From Allochromatium tepidum (GTDB taxonomy: Bacteria; Pseudomonadota; Gammaproteobacteria; Chromatiales; Chromatiaceae): a stretch of DNA of 64,000 nt. Below the pieces are notes generated by a model, which was not told the DNA's origin, made no database searches, and worked only from the letters and a program-made list of their open reading frames with translations. Location of the stretch: contig NZ_AP024563.1 in the NCBI RefSeq assembly GCF_018409545.1, positions 2,254,001 through 2,318,000 of the forward strand. The letters run 5' to 3'. Shown piece after piece: positions 1 to 14,431 of the stretch. The stretch's first letter is position 1; each line of letters opens with the position of its first letter. A program made the position numbers and the translations under genes.

Positions 1-91
1 CCACCGGCTCGGTCGTGACGATGCGCACCACCTGCCCGGGCTCCAGGCCCGAGACGGCGGCGTTCTTCCGGATCTGTTCGAGCTTCAGCAC
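1..91 (-). CDS. Helicase-like protein, N-terminal 30 codons (runs off left edge)
   Basis: The minus strand from a GTG at 91 reads about 30 codons beginning [16 protein letters not shown], followed by a [13 protein letters not shown] stretch. I recognise this as the N-terminus typical of large SNF2/DEAD-type helicases found in phage-defence loci. An AAGGGG Shine-Dalgarno sequence sits six bases before the GTG, which supports this start. No helicase motif lies inside the window, so the assignment rests on the N-terminal signature and on the context downstream of a BrxR/CapW-type regulator. It could belong to another protein with the same leader domain. The rest of the gene lies to the left of position 1. 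Confidence 0.5.
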
Positions 92-209
92 GGTGCGCCC
101 CTTGTCAGGCCGATGACGCGCGTGGGTGTGTTCTCCTTGGCGAGTTGCTCGATCTGCTTGACATCTTCAGACGTCCATCGCTTGCCGTGGTTGGCGGGGG
201 CTTAGCCAT
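92..209 (-). pseudogene. Broken small gene with a SANT/Myb-like motif
   Basis: An ATG at 209 opens MAKPPPTTAS, which stops after about 34 codons. A one-base shift reads instead [19 protein letters not shown] followed by [10 protein letters not shown], a motif I recall from small conserved proteins of about 65 residues that often sit in defence or phage-related loci. After VIGL the similarity ends and the helicase gene begins. The gene therefore seems to carry a frameshift near its start and to have lost its C-terminal half. The function of the intact family is unknown to me; the tryptophan pattern resembles a SANT-type helix-turn-helix. Confidence 0.45.
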
Positions 210-264
210 GGTGGGGCTCCCTTTTGGGCGTAGGGGTTGAGGGCGATGCAGACCATGTGCGTCA

Positions 265-1158
265 TCACTCCTCGCCGCGACCCTCGTAGCCCGGCGCCAG
301 GATCAGGTTCGTCACGCCGTACAAGGCCTGGCGATTGCGAAGCCAGAGGTGGTACTCGCCGCCCTTGAGACTGTGGTCTTCGGTGCAGTCGACGTTCCAG
401 CGGCGCAGCAGGTAGCCCGCCATCGCAGCACGGGCCCGGACTTTGAGCACGCCGTTCTCCATGCCGTACTCGGCTTCGATGGTGTCGGGGTGCTGGACGT
501 TGGCCGGGTGCGGCACCAGCTCAAGCTCGGTAATCCGGTTCCACTGGATGTCCTGTGCGGGCAACTCGTGCTCGTTGACCGGGCCGGGCAGCATCTTGGC
601 GTCGGCCAGGCGCGCCAGGACGAAGTCCCGGAACTCGCCGCTGCGGCGATCGAAAGCGCGCACGTGCCGGCATTGGCCGTTGTCGGCGAGGGCGAAGGGC
701 ACGATCTCCCGGGTGGTCAGCCCGCTCGACAGCGCGCGGTAGGAGACCTCGACCGCCGCGTTGCGATGGATCGCCCGCGTCAGGACGGAGAGCATCTCCA
801 GGTCGAGCCGGCCCGGCAGGGCGGTGCCTTCATGCGGGACGATGCCCTTCCGGCGGATCGGCTCGCCGTCGCCGTAACCCTCGGACAACCAGGTCAGGAC
901 ACGCTCGGCGGGAAAGTCGAACAGCGGCCGGAACCAGGAGCCGCGGACGTAGACCTTGCTCTTGGTGTCGTACTCCATGTTGCGCGGCGCCAGCTCCTTG
1001 TACTGCGCGATGTCGCGCGTGGCGGCTGCCGCCTGGATGTCGAAGCGGGCGACCAGATCCCGGCGGCGGATCTCGCCAACGAACCGCAGGCGCAGATCGA
1101 CGAACGCGAGCCGGTCGCGTTGCGCTTGAGTCATCTCCGGGAGTCGGTCGCTGGACAT
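265..1158 (-). CDS. WYL-domain transcriptional regulator, BrxR/CapW type
   Basis: This 297-residue protein has the three-part layout of BrxR/CapW regulators. A winged helix spans about residues 10-75 (AQRDRLAFVDLRLRFVGEI, then RRDLVARFDIQAAAATRDI). A WYL domain spans about 125-205 (including CRHVRAFDRRSGEFRDFVLA). A C-terminal WCX-like domain spans about 215-290. BrxR and CapW are repressors at the head of BREX, CBASS and related defence operons and are thought to be relieved by a nucleotide or nucleic-acid signal bound by the WYL domain. Here it is first in a minus-strand series followed by a broken small gene and a helicase-like gene, which fits control of a defence operon. A palindrome on its own promoter suggests autoregulation. 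No catalytic domain is present. Confidence 0.75.
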   Translation of the reverse strand: MSSDRLPEMTQAQRDRLAFVDLRLRFVGEIRRRDLVARFDIQAAAATRDIAQYKELAPRNMEYDTKSKVYVRGSWFRPLFDFPAERVLTWLSEGYGDGEPIRRKGIVPHEGTALPGRLDLEMLSVLTRAIHRNAAVEVSYRALSSGLTTREIVPFALADNGQCRHVRAFDRRSGEFRDFVLARLADAKMLPGPVNEHELPAQDIQWNRITELELVPHPANVQHPDTIEAEYGMENGVLKVRARAAMAGYLLRRWNVDCTEDHSLKGGEYHLWLRNRQALYGVTNLILAPGYEGRGEE

Positions 1159-1185: not shown

Positions 1186-1216
1186 TGAGTATCACGGTAC
1201 TCAGATCGAACGTCAA
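1186..1216 (-). promoter_or_regulatory. Promoter of the WYL regulator with an overlapping palindromic operator
   Basis: On the minus strand a -35 hexamer TTGACG (1216-1211) and a -10 hexamer GATACT (1193-1188) are separated by 17 bases. A perfect inverted repeat, TGAGTA-N6-TACTCA (1186-1203), covers the -10 hexamer. This is the geometry of a repressor site that blocks RNA polymerase, and BrxR/CapW proteins are known to bind inverted repeats upstream of their own genes. The start codon lies 28 bases downstream. Binding by this protein is inferred. Confidence 0.65.
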
Positions 1217-1549
1217 TAAGAATTAAGATAATCCTAATGTATGTTGCATAATGATGATGATTTGGTCGGGCGAGGTGGGCGGCTCGGCTGGCCGGCCTCG
1301 GCGGCGAGGCTCGGTCACGAGACGGTTGGCGTTCTCTCGGGAAGGCGGGCGTGGCCGCTTCGTATAGATGGCCGCCCTCAAGGGCGCTGGGTTACCCGTC
1401 TTGCGCGAAAAGCCCCGCCGTTCAGGGCGGGGGAAGGATAGCGCGGACGGCGTAGCCGTCCTTGGTTTTTGCTTTGTGCGACAAAAACGCAGTGCCGTCC
1501 ATGCCTAATCTCTTTGCCATCGCTCATAGACCAAGAGTATGATTAAACT

Positions 1550-2773
1550 ATGAAAAGACGACTTCAAGCCTACAAGTACGAACTGCGGCCCAACGGCCGG
1601 CAAGCGCGGCAAATGCGCCGCTTTGCCGGTTCATGCCGCTTTGTATTCAACAAGGCGCCGGCGTTGCAGAAGGCGCGTTACGAGCAAGGCGAATCGAGGC
1701 TCGGCTATGCCGGGTTGTGCAAGCTACTGACCGAGTGGCGCAACGGCGCGGAAACGGTGTGGCTCTCCGATGCACCCGTCCATCCCTTGCAACAGGCGCT
1801 CAAGGATTTGGAGCGGGCCTACAGCAACTTTTTCGCCAAGCGGGCCGACTTCCCGCGCTTCAAGAAGAAAGGCCGGTCGGACAGCTTCCGCTATCCCGAC
1901 CCGAAACAGATCAAGCTCGACCAAGCCAACAGCCGCCTGTTCCTACCCAAACTCGGCCGGCTGCGCTACCGCAACAGCCGCGAGGTGCTCGGCACGGTGA
2001 AGAACGTCACCGTCAGCCGGTCTTGCGGCAAATGGTTCGTGTCGATCCAGACTGAGCGTGAGGTTGAACAACCGTTGCCGAAAGGCGGCGCGGTCGGCAT
2101 CGATATGGGTGTGGCACGCTTTGCCACGCTGTCAGACGGCACGTTCTATGCGCCGCTCAACAGCTTCAAGCGGCATGAAACGCGCTTGCGCCGTGCGCAG
2201 CAGGCGATGAGCCGCAAGGTCAAGTTCAGCAACAACTGGAAGAAGGCCAAAGCCCGCGTCCGGAAGATTCATTCCCGCATCGGCAATGCCCGCCGCGACT
2301 ACCTGCACAAGTGCTCCACCACGATCAGCCAAAACCACGCGATGGTGTGTATCGAGGACTTGCAGGTGAGGAATATGTCGAAGTCGGCGGCAGGCACAGC
2401 AGAGGCGCCGGGAAGAAACGTTCGGGCCAAATCCGGCCTGAACAAGTCCATCCTCGATCAGGGTTGGTTCGAGTTTCGCCGTCAACTGGACTACAAGTTG
2501 GCGTGGAGCGGCGGCCATCTCATTGCCGTACCACCGCAGAACACGAGCCGCACCTGTCCCTGTTGCGGCTATATGTCGGCGGAGAATCGCCGAACACAAG
2601 CCCGGTTCGAGTGCGTGGAATGCGGTTTCGAGGAAAACGCCGATGTGGTCGGCGCGATCAACGTTCTAAGGGCGGGACACGCCCGGTTAGCCTGTGAAGC
2701 GAGCGGTGCGGTAAGGCCGCCGGCCGCAGGAACCCACCGAAGCGACTCGGGGGTGGCTCAATGCCGCGCCTGA
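1550..2773 (+). CDS. tnpB: TnpB RNA-guided nuclease of IS605-family element (copy 1)
   Basis: This 407-residue TnpB/OrfB protein has the RuvC-like nuclease core. The first acidic motif is VGIDMGVARFATL, the second is MVCIEDLQVRNM, and a zinc ribbon of two CxxC pairs (CPCCGY and CVECGF) precedes the third acid in ENADVVGAINVL. TnpB proteins of this family are RNA-guided DNA endonucleases that help the element persist after excision. The length and catalytic residues look intact. The N-terminus (MKRRLQAYKYELRPNG) and a stretch around residues 175-200 differ from copy 2, while most of the C-terminal half is almost identical. The 3' end of the gene runs into the element's right end, where the guide RNA is normally encoded. 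Confidence 0.88.
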   Translation: MKRRLQAYKYELRPNGRQARQMRRFAGSCRFVFNKAPALQKARYEQGESRLGYAGLCKLLTEWRNGAETVWLSDAPVHPLQQALKDLERAYSNFFAKRADFPRFKKKGRSDSFRYPDPKQIKLDQANSRLFLPKLGRLRYRNSREVLGTVKNVTVSRSCGKWFVSIQTEREVEQPLPKGGAVGIDMGVARFATLSDGTFYAPLNSFKRHETRLRRAQQAMSRKVKFSNNWKKAKARVRKIHSRIGNARRDYLHKCSTTISQNHAMVCIEDLQVRNMSKSAAGTAEAPGRNVRAKSGLNKSILDQGWFEFRRQLDYKLAWSGGHLIAVPPQNTSRTCPCCGYMSAENRRTQARFECVECGFEENADVVGAINVLRAGHARLACEASGAVRPPAAGTHRSDSGVAQCRA

Positions 2774-2816
2774 GCGCCGTAGGAATCTCCGGCCTTCAGG
2801 CTGGGGAGGATGTCAA
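2670..2816 (+). ncRNA. Probable omega (right-end) guide RNA of tnpB copy 1
   Basis: In IS605-family elements the TnpB guide RNA comes from the 3' end of tnpB and the right end of the element, and its guide is the flanking DNA. The segment here includes the tnpB tail, the right-end hairpin (2789-2809) and TCAA. The expected guide would start at 2817 (gcaccgaaaggc). The 5' boundary is a guess; only the hairpin and the end signal are seen directly. Confidence 0.42.
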
Positions 2817-4788
2817 GCACCGAAAGGCATCCAAAGATGAAGGAGACGACCTATTGGCGCTGTTTGAGCAGGGTCGGCATGCGGATGCGGAAACCAAGGC
2901 ACGTCTCTGGACTGAAGATTATCCGCATGACGTCTTTGGCTGGAAGATATTAGGGGCGATCCTGACGACTACCCAGCGTCATCAGGAAGCTATTTCAGTT
3001 TTGGAAACAGCCCTGATGCTCTCGCCGGAAGACGCCGAATGTCTAAATATACTCGGCACTGCGCTCGAGGATGGAGGCCGACCGGAGGAGGCGGGTGTCT
3101 TTTATGCGCGTGCTGCTCGCCAAGCGCCTGGTTTCGTGGCTGCATTCTACAATCTGGCCAAGCTGCTTCAGAGATTGGGGCGTCTTGATGAGGCGCGATT
3201 TTATTTCGAGCACGCGTTGAGCATCAATCCACTCCATCTCAAATCGCTCAATAATCTGGGTTCACTGCTCCGTGACCTAGGGTGTACGCAGGAAGCATTG
3301 GACTGTTATCGGCGCGCTTTAGCCATAAATCCTTCTCAACCCGAAGCACTCACCAATCTGGGCAACCTGCTGCTGAGTCTCGGGCAACTGCATGAGGCCT
3401 TAGAGTGTCAAAAACGCGCGGCTCGTCTACAACCCGGATATCCCGAAATTCTGTCGAATCTCGGTAATGCTTTACAGCATCTAGGACGCCTTGACGAGGC
3501 ATTGGAAGTTTACCGCCAAGCATTGACGATCAGGCCGGATGATACGTCGATTCATAGCAAACTCCTCTTTACACTGAACTACCATCCGGATCAGAGTGCC
3601 GAACAGATCTTCAGCGCCTACCAGGAGTTCGACCGGCGCTTCGGCGCGCCGCATCGCCCCCGTCGGCCACCGCCGGCCAGTGACCGAGACCCCGATCGAC
3701 GCTTGCGTATCGGCTACGTCTCACCGGATTTTCGCTGTCACTCCATCAGCCATTTTCTCGAACCCGTACTGGCGCATCACGATCACCAGTCATTCGAGAT
3801 CACCGCCTATGCCGAACTGACCCGGGAAGACCGACTCACGGCACTCTATCGCGGGCTGGTCGACCGCTGGGTTCCGACGCATGGACTGAGCGATGATGCC
3901 CTGGCCGAGCGCATCCGTGCCGACGGCATCGACATCCTGATCGATCTGGCCGGACATACCGCCGGCAACCGACTGGGCGTATTTGCCCGCCGCCCGGCCC
4001 CGGTCTCCGTGACCTGGATGGGCTATGGCTATACCACCGGGCTGAGTGCGATCGATTACTTCCTCACCGATACGATCATGGCGCCTGCGGGCTGTGAGCC
4101 GCTGTTTGCCGAGCGTCTCTGGCGTCTGGACGCGCCGATCGGCGTCTATCGCCCCGTATCCGACATGGGCGAGGCCGGCCCCCTGCCCGCACTCACTCAC
4201 GGCACTGTGACCTTCGGCACGCTGACGCGCCATGTGCGCCTCAATCATCATGTCATCCGGGTCTGGTCGGAGATTCTCAGGCGACTACCGACAGCGCGGC
4301 TGATCATCGACAGCAAGGATTTTGCGACCGAAACCGTGCAACAGCAGCTGGCCGAGCGCTTCGCCGCGCATGGCATCGAACCCACACGGCTGAGCATCGG
4401 CTATCACAGCCCGCCCTGGGACGTCCTGCGCGCCATGGACATCGGACTGGACTGCTTCCCGCACAACTCGGGCGCCACACTGGTCGAGTCGCTCTACATG
4501 GGCGTGCCCTTCATCACCCTGGCCGCGCGCCCGAGCGTCGGTCGTTCCGGCAGTAGCGTACTCACCGGCGCGGGACATCCGGAATGGATCGCCGCCAGTG
4601 AAGCCGAGTATGTCGACAAGGCCGTGGCGCTGGCGAGTGACCTGGAGCAGCTGGCCGCTCTGCGTTCGCGCTTGCGCGCCGACTTCGAGGCCGGCCCCTG
4701 GCGCGACGAGGCCGGATTCGTCCGACGTGTCGAGCAGGCCTATCGGCAGATGTGGCAACTCTGGTGCAAGACGGAACCGGCAACCTGA
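2761..4788 (+). CDS. TPR-containing O-linked GlcNAc transferase-like glycosyltransferase (GT41/SPINDLY)
   Basis: The protein has about six or seven TPR units (residues about 50-265, with repeats of the LGNLLLSLGQLHEALEC type). A GT41 catalytic region follows from about residue 315 (RRLRIGYVSPDFRCHSISHF) through DILIDLAGHTAGNR and VTWMGYGYTTG to the C-terminal GLDCFPHNSGATLVE part. Enzymes of this type add sugars to Ser/Thr of proteins, and bacterial copies next to flagellin genes glycosylate flagellin. The ATG at 2761 lies inside the insertion sequence. A TTG at 2854 with AAGGAG eight bases upstream is an alternative start. Joining the DNA across the element restores a longer open frame from 1241. 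The true N-terminus is therefore uncertain, but the catalytic part looks whole. Confidence 0.8.
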   Translation: MPRLSAVGISGLQAGEDVKHRKASKDEGDDLLALFEQGRHADAETKARLWTEDYPHDVFGWKILGAILTTTQRHQEAISVLETALMLSPEDAECLNILGTALEDGGRPEEAGVFYARAARQAPGFVAAFYNLAKLLQRLGRLDEARFYFEHALSINPLHLKSLNNLGSLLRDLGCTQEALDCYRRALAINPSQPEALTNLGNLLLSLGQLHEALECQKRAARLQPGYPEILSNLGNALQHLGRLDEALEVYRQALTIRPDDTSIHSKLLFTLNYHPDQSAEQIFSAYQEFDRRFGAPHRPRRPPPASDRDPDRRLRIGYVSPDFRCHSISHFLEPVLAHHDHQSFEITAYAELTREDRLTALYRGLVDRWVPTHGLSDDALAERIRADGIDILIDLAGHTAGNRLGVFARRPAPVSVTWMGYGYTTGLSAIDYFLTDTIMAPAGCEPLFAERLWRLDAPIGVYRPVSDMGEAGPLPALTHGTVTFGTLTRHVRLNHHVIRVWSEILRRLPTARLIIDSKDFATETVQQQLAERFAAHGIEPTRLSIGYHSPPWDVLRAMDIGLDCFPHNSGATLVESLYMGVPFITLAARPSVGRSGSSVLTGAGHPEWIAASEAEYVDKAVALASDLEQLAALRSRLRADFEAGPWRDEAGFVRRVEQAYRQMWQLWCKTEPAT

Positions 4789-5307: not shown

Positions 5308-6531
5308 ATGCAACGCTTCCAAGCCTTCAGATTTGAGTTGAAGCCCAACGGCGACCAAGCGCGCAACCTGCGCCGCTTCGCGGGGGCGTGCCGCTTCGTC
5401 TACAACCGGGCGCTGGCGTTGCAGAAGGCGCGTTACGAGCAAGGCGAATCGAGGCTCGGCTATGCCGGGTTGTGCAAGCTGCTTACCGAGTGGCGCAACA
5501 GCACGGAAACGGTGTGGCTCTCCGATGCGCCTGTCCATCCCTTGCAGCAGGCTCTCAAGGATCTGGAGCGTGCCTACGCCAACTTCTTCGCCAAGCGAGC
5601 CGGCTTCCCACGCTTCAAGAAGAAAGGCCGGTCGGACAGCTTCCGCTATCCCGACCCGAAACAGATCAAGCTCGACCAAGCGAACAGCCGCCTGTTTCTG
5701 CCCAAGCTGGGCCGGCTGCGCTACCGCAACAGCCGCGAGGTGCTCGGCACGGTGAAGAACGTCACCGTCAGCCAGTCCGGCGGCAAGTGGTTCGTGTCGA
5801 TCCAGACCGAGCGCGAAGCCGAGATCCCGGTTCATCAGGGCACGGCCGTCGGGATCGACCTGGGCATCGTCCGCTTCGCCACCTTGAGCGACGGGACGGT
5901 CTACGCCCCGCTCAATAGCTTCAAGCGGCATGAAACGCGCTTGCGCCGTGCGCAGCAGGCGATGAGCCGCAAGGTCAAGTTCAGCCGCAACTGGGAAAAG
6001 GCCAAAGCCCGCGTCCGGAAGATTCATTCCCGCATCGGCAATGCCCGCCGCGACTTCCTGCATAAGACCTCGACCGCGATCAGCCAAAACCACGCGATGG
6101 TGTGTATCGAGGACTTGCAGGTGAGGAATATGTCGAAGTCGGCGGCAGGCACAGCAGAGGCGCCGGGAAGAAACGTTCGGGCCAAATCCGGCCTGAACAA
6201 GTCCATCCTCGATCAGGGTTGGTTCGAGTTTCGCCGTCAACTGGACTACAAGTTGGCGTGGAGCGGCGGCCATCTCATTGCCGTACCACCGCAGAACACG
6301 AGCCGCACCTGTCCCTGTTGCGGCTATATGTCGGCGGAGAATCGCCGGACACAAGCCCGGTTCGAGTGCGTGGAATGCGGTTTCGAGGAAAACGCCGATG
6401 TGGTCGGCGCGATCAACGTTCTAAGGGCGGGACACGCCCGGTTAGCCTGTGAAGCGAGCGGTGCGGTAAGGCCGCCGGCAGCAGGAACCCACCGAAGCGA
6501 CTCGGGGGCGGCGGCTCGCTGCCGCGCCTGA
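5308..6531 (+). CDS. tnpB: TnpB RNA-guided nuclease of IS605-family element (copy 2)
   Basis: This is a second 407-residue TnpB with all catalytic motifs: VGIDLGIVRFATL, MVCIEDLQVRNM, the CPCCGY/CVECGF zinc ribbon and ENADVVGAINVL. Its N-terminus (MQRFQAFRFELKPNGDQ) has the more usual FVYNRALAL motif, where copy 1 has FVFNKAPAL. From about residue 270 to near the end the two copies are almost identical at both DNA and protein level. The last residues differ (GAAARCRA against GVAQCRA). It pairs with the divergent tnpA and is probably the autonomous copy. Confidence 0.9.
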   Translation: MQRFQAFRFELKPNGDQARNLRRFAGACRFVYNRALALQKARYEQGESRLGYAGLCKLLTEWRNSTETVWLSDAPVHPLQQALKDLERAYANFFAKRAGFPRFKKKGRSDSFRYPDPKQIKLDQANSRLFLPKLGRLRYRNSREVLGTVKNVTVSQSGGKWFVSIQTEREAEIPVHQGTAVGIDLGIVRFATLSDGTVYAPLNSFKRHETRLRRAQQAMSRKVKFSRNWEKAKARVRKIHSRIGNARRDFLHKTSTAISQNHAMVCIEDLQVRNMSKSAAGTAEAPGRNVRAKSGLNKSILDQGWFEFRRQLDYKLAWSGGHLIAVPPQNTSRTCPCCGYMSAENRRTQARFECVECGFEENADVVGAINVLRAGHARLACEASGAVRPPAAGTHRSDSGAAARCRA

Positions 6532-6608: not shown

Positions 6609-7103
6609 ATGAACCAACGCCGCTGGCCGACCCAACTTGCCGCCTACCCCTATGCCCAGCCGCTGCTGATCGGATGGCAGATTGCCGATCGCGAACGAGA
6701 TGCCTACTGGAATGACTACGAGCAGGCGCTCGACGCCTATCTAGCCTCTCAGGATGAGACCCTGACCGACGAAGAACGCCGGAACTGGCTCCTGACTAGT
6801 CGCGAACGCTTTCAGGCTTTAGCCGCTAGGGGCGATCGGCATATCGGCACCAGCCTGGCTCTCATCCGCATTCACTCCGAACTTGGCGAACCGCAAGCCG
6901 TGATACAGGCGATCGAGCAGATGCTCGATATCATGCCCTGGCTCGCCGAGCCACTGCCTGATGAACTGGAGCTTCACGTCAACAGACCCTTTATCGCGCC
7001 GCTTGCCGACTTTGACCAAAAACAGGTTTTCGATAGCGATCTAGGTCAGTGGATTCAGTCGGGAGTCATGACCGCCCTGGAGACTGCCGACCGCACTGCA
7101 TAG
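6609..7103 (+). CDS. Hypothetical protein in the flagellin-modification region
   Basis: This 164-residue soluble protein has no signal peptide or membrane segment and is rich in Trp, Glu and Leu. I do not recognise a named family. It begins MNQRRWPTQLAAYPYAQPLL and has helical character throughout. It lies 35 bases to the right of the second insertion element. Before that insertion it would have followed the GT41 gene by about 48 bases, so it was probably its partner. Its 3' end overlaps the convergent methyltransferase gene by 38 bases. It may be an accessory protein for flagellin modification or the C-terminal part of a once larger gene; no catalytic motif is visible. Confidence 0.55.
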   Translation: MNQRRWPTQLAAYPYAQPLLIGWQIADRERDAYWNDYEQALDAYLASQDETLTDEERRNWLLTSRERFQALAARGDRHIGTSLALIRIHSELGEPQAVIQAIEQMLDIMPWLAEPLPDELELHVNRPFIAPLADFDQKQVFDSDLGQWIQSGVMTALETADRTA

Positions 7104-9465
7104 GCGACGACGTCGCTGCTTTTCGCACCCAGAACTGATACATCCCGGCAAAGGTCTTGGGGTGTGCCTGTTCGAACCGGTGCCAATGCTCCAGATTGGT
7201 CGCAGACGGATCATCCGGAAAACGCTCGGCATAGCGCGCCATGACTCGCTGATCGAGGATGAATCCCACCAGACTCAGTTCCAGCTCGTGCAGCACGTCG
7301 GCCAGTTGCGGCAGCGTGAAACGCTGTTCGCTGACATGGAACAGCAGATCGCGGCACCCGCTGAGGCTATAGAAATCGGCGCTTCGGGTCAGAGGCGCAT
7401 CATCGGACTCATCGTGCTGCCGGAGCAGTTGCTGCCGAAACGCGCGTATTTCTGTGGCGGTCGGTTGTCGGTTCTCGCGCGCAATCTGCTCGCGCACCCT
7501 GACTATGTCACGGCGCGCCCATTCGCTATAAAGCCCGATCGACATGAAACCGTCGGGACGCAGATGCGCAAGTAACGCCTTCCAACCGGCGATGGGGTCT
7601 TGCAGATGATGCAGCACGCCCACCGACTCGATCAGATCGAAAGACTCTTCGAGCTTGTCCAATCGCAGAATGTCGGCCTGAGCATAACGGACGTTGGTCA
7701 CGCCCAGCTCGTGCGTCTTGCGTTTCGCGTAGGCGAGACTAGCCAAAGACAGATCGACAGCTAGGATTTGCGCCTCGGGGTAGCGTCGGGCAACGTCGAG
7801 CGAATGCAGCCCCGTGCCGCAACCGGCCACCAGGATCGAAACCCGGCCATCCTGCCGGACTGGTGGATGAAGATGTGCGTTGGGGAATTGTTGGCGAACA
7901 TAGGCGGCGATGGTCGGGGCCGAGGGAACGATCCCAGCCCGCGTCCAGCGCGGATAGGGATGCTCCTCGTATTGCGCCCGCACCTCGACCGAAACGGAAT
8001 CGGCGATTGCAGTCAGACGCGGCATCGAGCGGCGATATTCCGCCTCCAGCAGCGGCTCGCGCACCTGTTCGATCAGCACCTGCATGACCGGCTCGGACCA
8101 GTCGTGCTCCAGCAACCCGGCCGGCTCCGGCAGCGTCAGCAGCGGTCGATAGGACGCCAGCGTGAGCAGATACGGCTCCGCGATCGGCGCCTGTTGGCGT
8201 AGCGCCGTCGACAACGCTCCATGCAGCGCCTCGATGCGCGCCGTTTCCGGATCGCTCTCCGCCCAGACGTAATCATTGAGATGGCATTGCCGCGCCAGCG
8301 CTGCCGGCAGACGCCGCGCCGTTGCGTCGAACAGCCGCATCGCCCCGTTCAGTGCCACCGCCTCCAGCAGCGCGCGCCGAACCTGGGTCAACAGCCGCTC
8401 CAAATCGGTATCTGCAATCGGGCAGGCTTCCAGCAGACCCATCAGCACGTCATCGTCGGCCAACCTGACCAATCCGGTCGTGCCGAACAGATCCGCCGCC
8501 GTCAGCGTCTCACCACCGTTGAGACGGGCAAGGGCGGACGCGATGAGCGGATTCAGGCGGATGAAACTGACGCAGGTAACCATGAGTTCATGCGGACGAC
8601 ACCAGGATTCGCGCAACGCCTGAACCAGCCGTGCGCGAATCTCGGGGCGATCCTGCGTGAAAGTCAGCCGCTTGAGACAGTGCGCATACTGGCTCTTGGC
8701 CAGGGGCCAGTCGGGTTTCAGGTCCAGGGCGCGGCCATAGTGTGCCAGCGACTCCTCGAAGCGCCCCAGGTCGCGCAGCACCGATCCCAGGTTGTGATGT
8801 GCTTCGGCGAAATCCGGTTTGAGTTCGATGGCGCGCGCATAGGCCGCGAGCGCCGCCTCCAGACGTCCGAGCGCCTTGAGTGCATGACCGCGATCATTGT
8901 GAGCACTGGCCGAGTCCGGCCTCAACGCCAACGCTCGGTCGAGACAGACCAGCGCCTCGTCGGCCCGTCCGAGTTGCACCAGGACATTGCCGCGATTGAT
9001 GAGTGCGCTGACGTAATCCGGGCGCAGACTCAGACCGCGCTCGATCATGTTCAGGGCGGCATCGAGCTGTCCCAGATCCTGAAGCGTCTTGCCCAGGCTG
9101 TTGAGCGATTCGCTGTCGCGCGGATTGAGCTTGAGCGCCTGTTGCAGCGCGGGCAGCGCCTCGCATTGACGGTCGCAGGCCAGCAGGAGCGTTCCCAGCG
9201 CCTTCCAGCTGAAGGCGGCTTTGGGATAGCGCCGGGTGAAATCGCGCGCCATCGCCTCGCCCTCGCTCAGACGTCCGGCGTTGAACAGCGCCACCAAAGC
9301 GTCCTGCTCGGTCGTGGATGGGCCGGATGCGCCGGCGGCGCGGCGCATTCCAGGACGGTTCGGGACATGCGAACCGGGCGGTCGGTTATTCTTGCGCATG
9401 GCTGGGAGAAAACGTTTGAGGAATGAATCGAAGCATTCTAGCCGTGATCGCGGCCTTCCCTTCAC
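7066..9465 (-). CDS. TPR repeat protein with class I SAM-dependent methyltransferase domain
   Basis: About 225 N-terminal residues (roughly 50-275) form TPR repeats of the same style as the nearby GT41 protein. A middle region of unknown fold follows. A class I methyltransferase domain starts near residue 540 with the SAM-binding motif ILVAGCGTGLHSLDVARR, then ILAVDLSLASLAYAKRK and FDLIESVGVLHHLQDP. The C-terminus has an FSL-type ending of unknown role. The GTG at 9465 gives 799 residues; an ATG at 9399 (MRKNNRPPG) is an alternative start. It is divergent from fliC with a shared upstream region. Methylation of flagellin or of its glycan is a reasonable guess from position, but the substrate is not shown by the sequence. 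Confidence 0.7.
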   Translation of the reverse strand: MKGRPRSRLECFDSFLKRFLPAMRKNNRPPGSHVPNRPGMRRAAGASGPSTTEQDALVALFNAGRLSEGEAMARDFTRRYPKAAFSWKALGTLLLACDRQCEALPALQQALKLNPRDSESLNSLGKTLQDLGQLDAALNMIERGLSLRPDYVSALINRGNVLVQLGRADEALVCLDRALALRPDSASAHNDRGHALKALGRLEAALAAYARAIELKPDFAEAHHNLGSVLRDLGRFEESLAHYGRALDLKPDWPLAKSQYAHCLKRLTFTQDRPEIRARLVQALRESWCRPHELMVTCVSFIRLNPLIASALARLNGGETLTAADLFGTTGLVRLADDDVLMGLLEACPIADTDLERLLTQVRRALLEAVALNGAMRLFDATARRLPAALARQCHLNDYVWAESDPETARIEALHGALSTALRQQAPIAEPYLLTLASYRPLLTLPEPAGLLEHDWSEPVMQVLIEQVREPLLEAEYRRSMPRLTAIADSVSVEVRAQYEEHPYPRWTRAGIVPSAPTIAAYVRQQFPNAHLHPPVRQDGRVSILVAGCGTGLHSLDVARRYPEAQILAVDLSLASLAYAKRKTHELGVTNVRYAQADILRLDKLEESFDLIESVGVLHHLQDPIAGWKALLAHLRPDGFMSIGLYSEWARRDIVRVREQIARENRQPTATEIRAFRQQLLRQHDESDDAPLTRSADFYSLSGCRDLLFHVSEQRFTLPQLADVLHELELSLVGFILDQRVMARYAERFPDDPSATNLEHWHRFEQAHPKTFAGMYQFWVRKAATSSPMQCGRQSPGRS

Positions 9466-9651: not shown

Positions 9652-11766
9652 ATGGCAATGGTCATCAACACCAACGTGATGTCGCTGAATGCCCAGCGAA
9701 ATCTCACCAAATCCCAGGGCGCCCTGGGGCAGTCGATGGAACGCCTGAGCAGTGGTCTGCGCATCAACTCGGCCAAGGACGACGCCGCCGGCTCGGCGAT
9801 CGCCAGCCGCCTCACCTCGCAGATCCGGGGTTTCGATCAGTCGGTGCGCAACGCCAACGATGGTATTTCACTGGTGCAGACTGCCGAGGGTGCGCTGAGT
9901 GAGTCGTCCAACATCCTGCAACGCATGCGTGAGCTGGCCGTGCAGTCGGCGAACGGCACCTACACCTCCGGCAACCGCACCACGCTCAACGCCGAGACCC
10001 AGCAGTTGATCAAGGAGCTGGATCGCATTTCGACCAGCACCAACTTCAACGGAATGAATCTGCTCGATGGTTCGGCGCAGGAGGTCAAGCTACAAGTCGG
10101 TGCCGAGGCCAATCAGACCATCAGCGTCCGGATCAGCGCCATGGACTCCTCGTCACTCGGCATCGAAAAGACCGCCGGCATCGGGTCGGTGGGACGCATC
10201 GGAACAGGTACAACGGCGGCCCTGGCCACAACCGCCGTCGGTCAGTTAGGTACCGGCGATCTGGTGATCAACGGCATCGCAATCGACGCAGCCGTCGCAG
10301 CGTCCGATACAGCGTCCTCAGCAGCCAAGGCTTCAAGCGCCATTTCGACCGCCGCCGCCATCAATGCCAAGACCGATCAGACCGGCGTATCGGCCGTAGT
10401 GGGCGAAACGCGGATCGGCGGCAACGCCATGGCCTCCAGTACAGCCGCCATAGGATCCATCACGCTGAATGGCGTGACGATTGATCTGAGTACCACCACC
10501 GATACCGCCACCACACGTGCGGCGATCGTACGGGATATCAATCTAAAATCCGACCAAACCGGAGTGACCGCCATCGACTCCGGCACGGACAATGGCGGCA
10601 TTACCCTGGTAGCCGCTGACGGGCGCAATATCGTTCTGGAAAACACGTCAGGCGGTTTGACGGCAGGCAACACCGGTCTGGGCTTGGCCGGCGCATCCGG
10701 GAATACCGCCATCGCCACCGGCACCGTGACCCTGGTCTCCGAGGGCAACAAACCCATCACCATCAGCTCGGGCGCGACCGGCAATGCCTCGGATGTCGGC
10801 TTTGCCGAAGGTACCTTCAACGGCTCCAAGGTCCAGGTGTCCTCGAACCTCGGCACCAACACTACAGCGATGGCGGCGGGCAATGTTTTCGTCAACGGCG
10901 TCTCGGTCGGCCCGTCCTATGCCACCGACGATACGGCGTCTTCGGCCGGCAATGACTTCAGCGCCATATCCAAAGCCGCCGCCTTCAACGCGGTTTCGGA
11001 TAAGAGCGGCGTCACGGCGGTAGTCAATCGGAACATCGCGAAGAACGCGACGGCTCAGGCCACTGCAAGTGCTGCTGTATCCGGCTCAATCAATGGTGTA
11101 GCGATCACCGGCTTTACGACAGTTGCAGGTGCGGAGAACAACAGCCTCAATCGTCAGTCGCTGGTCAACGCCATCAATGCCATTTCCAAGCAAACAGGGG
11201 TGAAAGCGATCGATACCGGTGAGGATGGCAGTACTTCCGGCGGCGGCGTCCAACTCATCGCCGAGGATGGGCGCAACATCGTAGCGAACATCACCAATGG
11301 AGCGAACGCCGGCTTCAACTCAGGTGCGGGAACCTATGTCGGTGAATTCACGCTGGTCTCCGACAAGGAGATCGTCATCACCCGCGGCACCAACGCCGAT
11401 CTCTCCAACTCGGGCTTCACGGTCGGTAAGTATGGCGGCGGCGAGAAGGGTCAGTCGCTCAAGAACATCGACATCTCCACGATCGAGGGCGCCAACAAGG
11501 CCATCGTCGCCATCGACAACGCCCTGGAGAAGGTCAACAACGTCCGCTCCGACCTGGGTGCGGTCAACAACCGGCTGGACTTCACCATCAACAACCTGAC
11601 CAGCATCTCGCAGAACGCCTCGGCCTCGCGCTCGCGCATCGAGGATGCGGACTTCGCGCTCGAAACCTCGAGGCTCTCGCGCTCGCAGGTGTTGACACAG
11701 GCCAGCCAGGCGATGCTCGCCCAGGCCAACTCGCAACCCCAGCAGGTACTGTCACTCCTGCGCTAA
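9652..11766 (+). CDS. fliC: Flagellin
   Basis: Flagellin forms the flagellar filament. The conserved N-terminal D0/D1 part (MAMVINTNVMSLNAQRNL to about residue 145) and C-terminal part (about 600-704, ending in QANSQPQQVLSLLR) match the family. At 704 residues it is longer than the common 300-500. The extra length lies in the variable surface region, which contains two copies of a module of about 190 residues (about 202-396 and 409-593). Each copy carries flagellin hook-IN-like motifs such as DQTGVSAVV or KSGVTAVV and GRNIV. The Ser/Thr-rich surface domain is a plausible target of the neighbouring glycosyltransferase. The start has AGGAGA about ten bases upstream. A sigma-28 promoter and a CRP-like site lie ahead of it. 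Confidence 0.95.
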   Translation: MAMVINTNVMSLNAQRNLTKSQGALGQSMERLSSGLRINSAKDDAAGSAIASRLTSQIRGFDQSVRNANDGISLVQTAEGALSESSNILQRMRELAVQSANGTYTSGNRTTLNAETQQLIKELDRISTSTNFNGMNLLDGSAQEVKLQVGAEANQTISVRISAMDSSSLGIEKTAGIGSVGRIGTGTTAALATTAVGQLGTGDLVINGIAIDAAVAASDTASSAAKASSAISTAAAINAKTDQTGVSAVVGETRIGGNAMASSTAAIGSITLNGVTIDLSTTTDTATTRAAIVRDINLKSDQTGVTAIDSGTDNGGITLVAADGRNIVLENTSGGLTAGNTGLGLAGASGNTAIATGTVTLVSEGNKPITISSGATGNASDVGFAEGTFNGSKVQVSSNLGTNTTAMAAGNVFVNGVSVGPSYATDDTASSAGNDFSAISKAAAFNAVSDKSGVTAVVNRNIAKNATAQATASAAVSGSINGVAITGFTTVAGAENNSLNRQSLVNAINAISKQTGVKAIDTGEDGSTSGGGVQLIAEDGRNIVANITNGANAGFNSGAGTYVGEFTLVSDKEIVITRGTNADLSNSGFTVGKYGGGEKGQSLKNIDISTIEGANKAIVAIDNALEKVNNVRSDLGAVNNRLDFTINNLTSISQNASASRSRIEDADFALETSRLSRSQVLTQASQAMLAQANSQPQQVLSLLR

Positions 11767-11842
11767 ACTCATGGCAAGTTAAGTGACGGATGCGGGCGGC
11801 GCTCCAGACGGAGACCGCCCGCGCGAACCAGGAGAAAAAGCG

Positions 11843-12313
11843 ATGGCCGGCGATCCCATGAGTGTCAGCAGAGCGACACAACCCATTCAATCCACCGGAG
11901 CCACGGGCGCACGGACGCCTTCGAGTTCCGAGATCCGTCCAAACGGCTTGCCGCCGCCCGACAACCGCAGCGACGCCATACAGGGCAGCGCCGCGCGCTT
12001 GGCGAACCGCCTCGAATCCGGTCAAACGGGCCGCACTGAAGACATCGGAACCGATCCGTCCCAAGGCGTGGCCGCAACCGACAAGGAGATGGTCGACAAA
12101 CTGACCGAAGCCGTCGACAAGATCAACGAAATGATGCAACAAGGAAAGCAAATGCTGACCTTCCAACTCGACGAAGACTCGGGGCGGATGGTGGTCCGGG
12201 TGATCGATTCCCAGACCAAGGAAGTCGTCCGCCAGATCCCGAGCGAAGAAACGCTCAACTTCGCCAAATACGTCGATGGACTGATCGGTCTGATTTTCAA
12301 CAAGAAGGCATAA
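11843..12313 (+). CDS. flaG: FlaG family flagellar protein
   Basis: The C-terminal 75 residues carry the FlaG domain (MLTFQLDEDSGRMVVRVID, then EVVRQIPSEETL). The N-terminal half is low-complexity and Ser/Pro/Gly-rich. FlaG proteins affect filament length and lie between flagellin and the cap gene, as here. I chose the ATG at 11843 because AGGAG lies eight bases upstream; a longer frame opens at 11783 without a good site. The protein is about 156 residues and soluble. Confidence 0.85.
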   Translation: MAGDPMSVSRATQPIQSTGATGARTPSSSEIRPNGLPPPDNRSDAIQGSAARLANRLESGQTGRTEDIGTDPSQGVAATDKEMVDKLTEAVDKINEMMQQGKQMLTFQLDEDSGRMVVRVIDSQTKEVVRQIPSEETLNFAKYVDGLIGLIFNKKA

Positions 12314-12376
12314 ACCGCCGGCCGCCGACGTGATGGGCGTGGCAGACCGGTTCGACGAGACACTGGAGCAACGGCC

Positions 12377-14431
12377 ATGGCCGACAACATCATCAGTTCA
12401 CTGGGCGCCGGTTCCGGCATCGACATCAAGAATCTCGTCACCCAACTGACCGCCGTCGAGCGCGCACCAAAGGAAGCACGCCTGAACACCCGCCAGGAGC
12501 AACTCCAGGCGCAGATTTCCGGCTATGGTCAACTGCGCAGCGCCTTCGACACCTTCAAAGGCTCCCTGACGGCCCTGAGCAACGGCGACCTCTTCAACGC
12601 CCGCTCGGCCACCGTACCCAACTCGGACGTCATCACCGCCAACAAGGTCGAACCCGGCGCCCAAACCGGCGCCTACAAGATCGAGGTACAGGAAGTCGCC
12701 AGTGCCCAGTCACTGGCCATGGCCTCGAACGCCGAGCGCAACGGAGCGCTCAACAAATCGGGCGCCCTGACCATCCGCTTCGGCGAATGGACCTACGATG
12801 GGGGAACGGGTGCCCCCACCGACTTCGCGCTCAATAGCGACCGTAATGCCCTGACCATCGACATCAAGGCCGGCGACTCACTCACCAGCATCGCCGACAA
12901 GATCAACGCGACCAACGCGGGTGTCCAGGCGGCGGTAATCAAAGTCGACGATCGGTTCCAGCTCATGCTGACCGCGCCTTCGGGCAAATCGAACGCCATG
13001 GAGATCACAGCCGGCCCGGGTTCGGTCGGCCTGGATGACTTCGCCTTCAACGCCGCGACCCAGAACGCCACCGAGACCCAACAGGGGCAGGACGCTCAAC
13101 TCAAGGTCAATGGCTTGACCGTGACCCGCCAGACCAACGAGATCGACGACGTCATCGCCGGCTTTTCCTTCACGCTCAACAAAAAAGGCACCGCCGGCGA
13201 GAGCCTGAATTTCTCGATCACCGCCGACAAGACTGCCGCCGATCAGGCGATTCGCAATTTCGTCGCGGCCTACAACACCCTCCAGAAGACCACCCAGGAA
13301 CTGGTCGGCTTCACCCGCGACAAGGACGACAATCCGGTGCGCGGCGGTCTGGCCGGCGACAGCACGGCACGGAACATGATCAACCGTCTGCGCGAACAGA
13401 TCGGCGGTATCCTTCCGGGCGCCCAGGGCGGTTTCACGGCCCTGACCAATGTCGGCATCCGCACCGAGCGCGACGGCTCGCTCACGATCAACGAAACCGA
13501 CTTCAAAAACGCCTTCAACGACAACTTCAACCTGCTCGAAGGCCTGTTCGCCGGCAAGATGAGCTCGACCAACAGCGCGGTCGAGGTCAAGGCCGGCACC
13601 TTCGCCTCGCGCGCCGCCGCCGGTACCTATGACGTCGAGATCACCCAGGATCCGACACGCGGCCGGATCACCGGCAACGCCCTGACGCACGACTTCTCAG
13701 CACCGCTGGATGCCTCGGACCCGGCCGCCGACTACAGCTTCAGGATCAATGTCGACGGCACCAATTCGGGGCTGATCCGGCTCACCGGCACCTACGCGAG
13801 CGCCGACGAACTGCGCGCCGACCTTCAGGCCCGCATCAACGGCGACTCCAGCCTGAAAGCGGCCGGCGTGGCCGTGGACGTCGAGTACGATACCGACACC
13901 AACCAGTTCAATTTCGTCTCGCGCGAATACGGCTCGGTCTCGAAGGTGAGTTTCACAACCGCCAGCGCCCAGATGGCCGAATTGGGGATCGAGACCGCGC
14001 TGACCGGAACCCAGGGCCTGGATGTCAAGGGCACCATCAACGGCGTGGAAGGCTTCGGCGCCGGAAACGTCCTGCTGCCGGCCGTCGACTCGCCCGCCTA
14101 TGGTCTGAACCTGACCGTCGGCGCAGGTGCGACCGCCCAGGGTAAGTTCCAGATCAGCTTCTCGCGCGGCGTGGCCGGCGAACTGGCCAACATGATCGAC
14201 AACTTCATCGGCAGCACGGGTTCGATCAAGACCCGCGAATCCAGCATCCAGAAGCAGCTCGACGGCATCAAGGAGGAGCGCAGTGCACTCGACCGGCGCA
14301 TGGAGGGTTTCCAGGCGCGACTCATGACCCAATTCATGGCCATGGAGAACATCGTCAACAGCCTGAAGGATACCGGCAAACAACTGGACGGCATCAACGA
14401 CCGCCTGCCCTTCACTGCGTCCTCCAGGTAA
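12377..14431 (+). CDS. fliD: Flagellar filament cap protein FliD (HAP2)
   Basis: FliD forms the cap at the filament tip that guides folding of exported flagellin. The N-terminal signature ISSLGAGSGIDIKNLVTQL and the coiled C-terminus (residues about 600-680, MIDNFIGSTGSIKTRESSI and onward) are characteristic. The middle has a flagellin hook-IN-type repeat near residue 250. At 684 residues it is longer than the usual 450-500, so its surface domains are enlarged, as in the flagellin. It lies 63 bases after flaG and probably shares its transcript. GGAG lies upstream of the ATG. Confidence 0.93.
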   Translation: MADNIISSLGAGSGIDIKNLVTQLTAVERAPKEARLNTRQEQLQAQISGYGQLRSAFDTFKGSLTALSNGDLFNARSATVPNSDVITANKVEPGAQTGAYKIEVQEVASAQSLAMASNAERNGALNKSGALTIRFGEWTYDGGTGAPTDFALNSDRNALTIDIKAGDSLTSIADKINATNAGVQAAVIKVDDRFQLMLTAPSGKSNAMEITAGPGSVGLDDFAFNAATQNATETQQGQDAQLKVNGLTVTRQTNEIDDVIAGFSFTLNKKGTAGESLNFSITADKTAADQAIRNFVAAYNTLQKTTQELVGFTRDKDDNPVRGGLAGDSTARNMINRLREQIGGILPGAQGGFTALTNVGIRTERDGSLTINETDFKNAFNDNFNLLEGLFAGKMSSTNSAVEVKAGTFASRAAAGTYDVEITQDPTRGRITGNALTHDFSAPLDASDPAADYSFRINVDGTNSGLIRLTGTYASADELRADLQARINGDSSLKAAGVAVDVEYDTDTNQFNFVSREYGSVSKVSFTTASAQMAELGIETALTGTQGLDVKGTINGVEGFGAGNVLLPAVDSPAYGLNLTVGAGATAQGKFQISFSRGVAGELANMIDNFIGSTGSIKTRESSIQKQLDGIKEERSALDRRMEGFQARLMTQFMAMENIVNSLKDTGKQLDGINDRLPFTASSR

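What the first reader, a model, noticed from the sequence alone, without database searches (positions are those of the whole stretch)
1..1158. Edge of a likely phage-defence operon led by a BrxR/CapW-type WYL regulator
The protein at 265-1158 has the wHTH-WYL-WCX layout of BrxR/CapW repressors. The next complete start on the same strand opens a protein whose first 30 residues resemble helicases found in defence loci. Only the edge is in the window, so the effector genes to the left are unknown and could form a known or new system.
Basis: partly seen in the sequence, partly recalled or inferred. Interest (0 to 1): 0.7.

Follow-up and report, generated by a model that had tools for sequence, protein, structure and literature searches.

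The report
Regulator heading a known phage-defence operon
The genes at the left edge of the window are a BrxR-type regulator and the start of a complete, already described anti-phage operon (Hma: helicase, DNA methylase and ATPase) that also carries a known embedded ATPase-nuclease pair, so the locus is ordinary in kind, though the steady pairing of this regulator with Hma seems to be little described.

Summary
Window 265-1158 (minus strand) encodes a full-length BrxR/CapW-family WYL regulator; its best solved match is 7qfz, BrxR of Escherichia fergusonii (E = 3.6e-82). I read the chromosome left of the window. The frame at 1-91 is the start of a 1178-residue Snf2-type helicase with a C-terminal NOV_C (PD-(D/E)XK-like) domain, matching PADLOC HmaA at 2165 bits. 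Behind it on the same strand lie HmaB (DUF1156 adenine methylase), a HEC-02 ATPase plus small nuclease-like partner, and HmaC (DUF499 ATPase). This is a complete Hma system, also called Type-1 BREX-related, with a Hma-embedded candidate: known, not new. Among 71 close hmaA relatives with at least 1.5 kb upstream, 35 have this WYL gene directly in front of hmaA, and WYL and HmaA distances correlate (Mantel r 0.80). A TTGACG-N17-TATGCT-type promoter is conserved upstream of the WYL gene. A small gene lying between WYL and hmaA in 12 relatives is a wreck here. The genomic site, the 3' end of a hydrogenase protease gene, holds different defence genes in congeners. Control of the operon by the WYL protein is inferred, not shown.

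The parts
265..1158 (-). BrxR/CapW-family WYL transcriptional regulator, 297 aa, first gene of the operon
   Evidence: Pfam WYL; full-length phmmer match to BrxR 7qfz E=3.6e-82, CapW, BrxR 7t8k; same gene directly upstream of hmaA in 35 of 71 relatives
1188..1216 (-). Likely sigma-70 promoter of the regulator/operon: TTGACG (1216-1211), 17-base spacer, GATACT (1193-1188)
   Evidence: Equivalent -35/-10 pair at nearly the same distance from the start codon in most of 19 homologous upstream regions; alone it is not significant (shuffle chance 0.14)
1186..1203 (.). TGAGTA-N6-TACTCA inverted repeat overlapping spacer and -10; a candidate operator only
   Evidence: Seen in sequence; shuffle chance 0.21 and not conserved in the nearest promoters L014/L090, so unproven
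92..209 (-). Wreck of a small HTH-like gene (68 aa when intact) between regulator and hmaA: one-base deletion plus a deletion of about 150 bp removing its 3' half
   Evidence: Alignment with intact copies in L012, L037, L040, L090, L021; intact in 12 related loci
1..91 (-). 5' end of hmaA (GTG start at 91). The rest of the operon lies left of the window on locus L010 (window coordinate = L010 minus 19000), all minus strand: hmaA L010:15555-19091 (1178 aa), hmaB L010:12548-15439 (963 aa), HEC-02 ATPase L010:11491-12537 (348 aa), HEC-02 nuclease-like L010:10991-11488 (165 aa), hmaC L010:8146-10977 (943 aa)
   Evidence: PADLOC HmaA 2165 bits, HmaB 1755, HmaC 1581; HEC-02 models 537 and 158 bits; gaps 115, 10, 2 and 13 bases between successive genes

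Best explanation
This is a complete Hma (Type-1 BREX-related) anti-phage operon of about 12 kb, headed by a BrxR-family WYL regulator and carrying a HEC-02 ATPase-nuclease module between hmaB and hmaC. Likely working: the BrxR-like dimer sits on its own promoter and keeps the operon low; a signal bound by the WYL domain during infection relieves it. HmaB (adenine methylase with DPFAGGG and DPPY motifs) marks self DNA; HmaC (DUF499 AAA+ ATPase) and HmaA (Snf2 helicase with a PD-(D/E)XK-like NOV_C domain) find and destroy unmarked DNA. HEC-02, an OLD/ABC-type ATPase with a small PD-(D/E)XK-like partner, is a second, back-up effector. Shown here: gene content, order, motifs, family membership and the recurrent WYL-hmaA pairing. 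Inferred: repression by the WYL protein, the signal, the modification/restriction cycle, and the nuclease activity of the small HEC-02 protein.
For: Full-length PADLOC matches to HmaA/B/C and HEC-02; Pfam DUF1156, DUF499, SNF2/Helicase_C/NOV_C, AAA_21; catalytic motifs; tight same-strand spacing; same WYL-hmaA-hmaB-hmaC order in dozens of genomes; patchy presence, 8 of 55 searched genomes (the window's own included) with a helicase match at E<=1e-50, of which only some are true HmaA; BrxR of E. fergusonii shown to repress its defence island (PMC9122601); Hma described in PMC8565338 and placed with BREX in PMC12839542.
Against: No operator could be shown: the 18-base inverted repeat is within chance and not conserved. 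About half of hmaA relatives lack this WYL gene, so it is not needed for Hma as such. Fold search of the small HEC-02 protein gave no significant match. A 173-bp gap with a gene wreck separates regulator and hmaA, so a separate hmaA promoter is possible.
Confidence: 0.9

Rival explanations
1. The WYL protein is an activator or infection-triggered switch of the Hma operon rather than a repressor.
For: Distant WYL relatives PafBC and DriD activate on ssDNA (abstracts); no operator found here.
Against: Its closest characterised relatives, BrxR and CapW, match over the full length; BrxR is a shown repressor, CapW a transcription factor that controls CBASS (abstract).
Confidence: 0.1
2. The operon is no longer functional: decaying after loss of the small gene between WYL and hmaA.
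For: That small gene is broken here; a congener (G005) has a broken hmaA with an IS607-type element.
Against: All six main genes are full length with intact motifs; most relatives lack the small gene altogether.
Confidence: 0.07
3. It is a new defence system distinct from Hma because of the WYL regulator and the ATPase-nuclease pair.
For: The WYL gene is not part of the published three-gene Hma description.
Against: Core proteins match the Hma models over nearly their whole length and HEC-02 is itself a catalogued Hma-embedded candidate.
Confidence: 0.02

Closest known systems
Hma system (HmaABC; PADLOC 2021, PMC8565338), renamed Type-1 DUF499-centred BREX-related system (PMC12839542)
   Same: Helicase, DUF1156 methylase and DUF499 ATPase in one operon; helicase carries a C-terminal nuclease-type domain
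   Different: Here headed by a BrxR-type WYL gene, and HEC-02 sits between hmaB and hmaC; HmaC shows no extra N-terminal domain (the HmaC model matches from residue 1)
HEC-02, Hma-embedded candidate (PADLOC-DB; Payne et al. 2024 preprint cited in PMC12988326)
   Same: Both proteins match HEC-02 models and lie inside hma
   Different: No difference found; experimental status of HEC-02 itself not established in the papers read
BrxR / CapW WYL regulators (PMC9122601, PMC9122589, PMC9122588)
   Same: Full-length homology, first gene of a defence operon, key arginine kept
   Different: Controls (by position) Hma rather than BREX or CBASS; no convincing inverted-repeat operator

Membership tests
Hma system | HmaA helicase | tested here: met
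   PDLC00659, 2165 bits, 1-1175 of 1178
Hma system | HmaB methylase | tested here: met
   PDLC00660, 1755 bits; DUF1156 94 bits; DPPY motif
Hma system | HmaC ATPase | tested here: met
   PDLC00662, 1581 bits, 1-940 of 943; DUF499
Hma system | Genes in one operon | tested here: met
   Same strand, gaps of 2-115 bases between hmaA and hmaC; a shared transcript was not tested
Hma system | Protection against phage | not testable with these tools
   Needs cloning and phage challenge
HEC-02 | ATPase and small partner embedded in hma | tested here: met
   537 and 158 bits; located between hmaB and hmaC; same place in L018, L035, L047, L077, L086, and after hmaB in L071, L072
HEC-02 | Nuclease fold of the small partner | tested here: inconclusive
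   Invariant D24 D25 and ExKDYR (E58, K60) in 8 homologues; confident model, pLDDT 88, but no fold match below E 0.001
BrxR/CapW family | wHTH-WYL-WCX layout over full length | tested here: met
   7qfz E=3.6e-82 over 5-292
BrxR/CapW family | Binds inverted repeats at its own promoter | tested here: inconclusive
   One 18-base repeat, shuffle chance 0.21, not conserved
BREX (Types 1-6) | PglZ gene present | tested here: not met
   No PglZ among the operon proteins scanned
DISARM | DrmD above NCBI cut-off | tested here: not met
   385 bits against a cut-off of 610

The most novel reading that the evidence does not exclude
BrxR-family WYL proteins are a standing, co-inherited regulator of a large branch of Hma systems, often with a small HTH-like protein between regulator and hmaA, forming a control module not described in the Hma, BREX-related or BrxR papers read here.
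Probability: 0.5. Interest if true: 0.35.

Novelty: new member of a known kind. Interest (0 to 1): 0.22.

Why it matters
It names the system at the window edge and extends the BrxR family to a further, very widespread defence type. If the WYL protein does control Hma, it gives a handle on when a restriction-like system is switched on, and the variable site beside the hydrogenase gene is a place to look for further defence genes in this genus.

Tried and rejected
Operator search: the inverted repeat at 1186-1203 did not beat shuffles and is not conserved. DISARM DrmD, BREX BrxH and DpdE: weaker than HmaA by over 1700 bits, DrmD below its cut-off. The 228-aa ORF L010:10974-11660 first picked as a gene is a wrong frame over the real 165-aa HEC-02 partner. 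Fold search of that partner was inconclusive. The 68-aa small protein has no significant Pfam, NCBIfam or PDB match. Rfam on the left flank: nothing. The Halomonas HmaA experiment (Liu et al. 2024) could not be read and is cited only through PMC12839542.

Full report
Observation. The ORF at 265-1158 on the minus strand is a 297-residue protein. Pfam finds WYL. Against solved structures it aligns over nearly its whole length with 7qfz (E = 3.6e-82), which PMC9122601 names as E. fergusonii BrxR, and more weakly with CapW chains and BrxR 7t8k.

Left flank. The window starts at base 2254001 of contig 1 of its genome, so I fetched 59 kb to the left. The 1-91 frame is the start of a 1178-residue protein with SNF2, Helicase_C and C-terminal NOV_C domains. 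Next on the same strand are a 963-residue DUF1156 methylase, a 348-residue AAA_21 ATPase, a 165-residue protein and a 943-residue DUF499 ATPase. PADLOC calls these HmaA, HmaB, HEC-02, HEC-02 and HmaC with high scores. Spacing is 115, 10, 2 and 13 bases. Past HmaC lies a convergent hydrogenase maturation protease gene.

Known system. Hma was proposed by Payne et al. 2021 (PMC8565338) and is treated as a Type-1 DUF499-centred BREX-related system in PMC12839542, which cites an experiment showing phage defence by the helicase. Payne 2021 calls HmaB an m5C methylase; the motif order DPFAGGG then DPPY and PADLOC's own label fit an adenine methylase, as PMC12839542 states. Hma-embedded candidates are described through a 2024 preprint cited in PMC12988326; some, including HEC-06, were tested there; I found nothing on HEC-02 itself.

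Regulator and operon. I collected 80 related hmaA loci. HmaB was found in 70, HmaC in 60, the WYL gene in 37 and HEC-02 in 7-8, placed behind hmaB and, where both are on the contig, in front of hmaC. Of 71 loci with enough upstream DNA, 35 have the WYL gene on the same strand within 700 bases of hmaA. WYL and HmaA distances correlate (Mantel r 0.80, p 0.001, n = 34), which is what joint inheritance would give, though host relatedness may contribute. These loci are the closest homologues, so the fraction must not be read as that of Hma in general. A TTGACG-N17-TATGCT-like promoter lies 58-68 bases before the WYL start in most of 20 aligned loci, including this one. An operator could not be shown. 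Repression is inferred from BrxR. The BREX-related and BrxR papers read do not mention this pairing in the main text as far as term searches show; supplements were not available.

Small gene wreck. In 12 loci a 68-residue HTH-like ORF lies between WYL and hmaA. Here it has lost one base near its start and about 150 bases at its end, which brings hmaA closer to the regulator. A relative lies among tail genes in a Pseudomonas aeruginosa plasmid record, so the small protein is not tied to Hma. 'HTH-like' is a reading of the sequence by eye; no family or structure matched.

HEC-02 partner. Eight homologues share invariant D24, D25, E58, K60, D61, Y62 and R63, a PD-(D/E)XK-like pattern. AlphaFold2 gives a confident model, but no PDB match passes E 0.001; several of the weak best matches are nucleases of that class. 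Nuclease activity is therefore an inference.

Site. In three congeners the hydrogenase genes and the protease gene are conserved at about 92-96% identity, and homology stops just after the protease gene. What follows differs: an OLD nuclease in G001, a BsuBI/PstI-type restriction-modification pair in G002, and phoU with no defence gene in G004. The 3' end of this gene thus looks like a variable defence site in the genus, on four genomes. The IS607-type element between the hydrogenase large-subunit gene and the protease gene is absent from all three, which gives its empty site. A close WYL relative is not found in the other seven genomes of the genus.

Verdict. Observation and interpretation are both right. 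The system is a new member of a known kind.

Noticed in passing
window 92-209: Wreck of a 68-aa HTH-like gene that is intact between WYL and hmaA in 12 related loci; a relative is found in a P. aeruginosa plasmid record with phage tail genes.
   Followed up: yes
L010:7658-8113 and the DNA after it: 3' end of a hydrogenase maturation protease gene is a variable defence site in the genus: Hma here, OLD nuclease in G001, BsuBI/PstI-type RM in G002, none in G004.
   Followed up: partly
L010:5781-7575: IS607-type element (MerR-resolvase plus TnpB) inserted between the hydrogenase large-subunit and protease genes; three congeners show the empty site.
   Followed up: partly
L113 (G005) 9839-13327: Congener with a broken hmaA (one stop, truncated) abutting an IS607-type element, 85-89% identical to the window's hmaA protein.
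   Followed up: partly
window 1383-1500, 1550-2773, 5308-6531: Two closely similar TnpB genes; the DNA before the first (GCCCCGCCGTTCAGGGCGGGG hairpin) recurs some 20 times in the genome, as expected for transposon ends or guide-RNA-like pieces.
   Followed up: no
window 2761-4788 and 7066-9465: Two large TPR proteins, one resembling O-GlcNAc-transferase-like proteins, the other joined to a methyltransferase-like domain (by eye only).
   Followed up: no
L012-L091, between hmaA and hmaB and between hmaB and hmaC: Many relatives have 0.7-3 kb of extra DNA at these two junctions, where this locus has only 115 bases at the first and HEC-02 at the second; likely other embedded genes.
   Followed up: no
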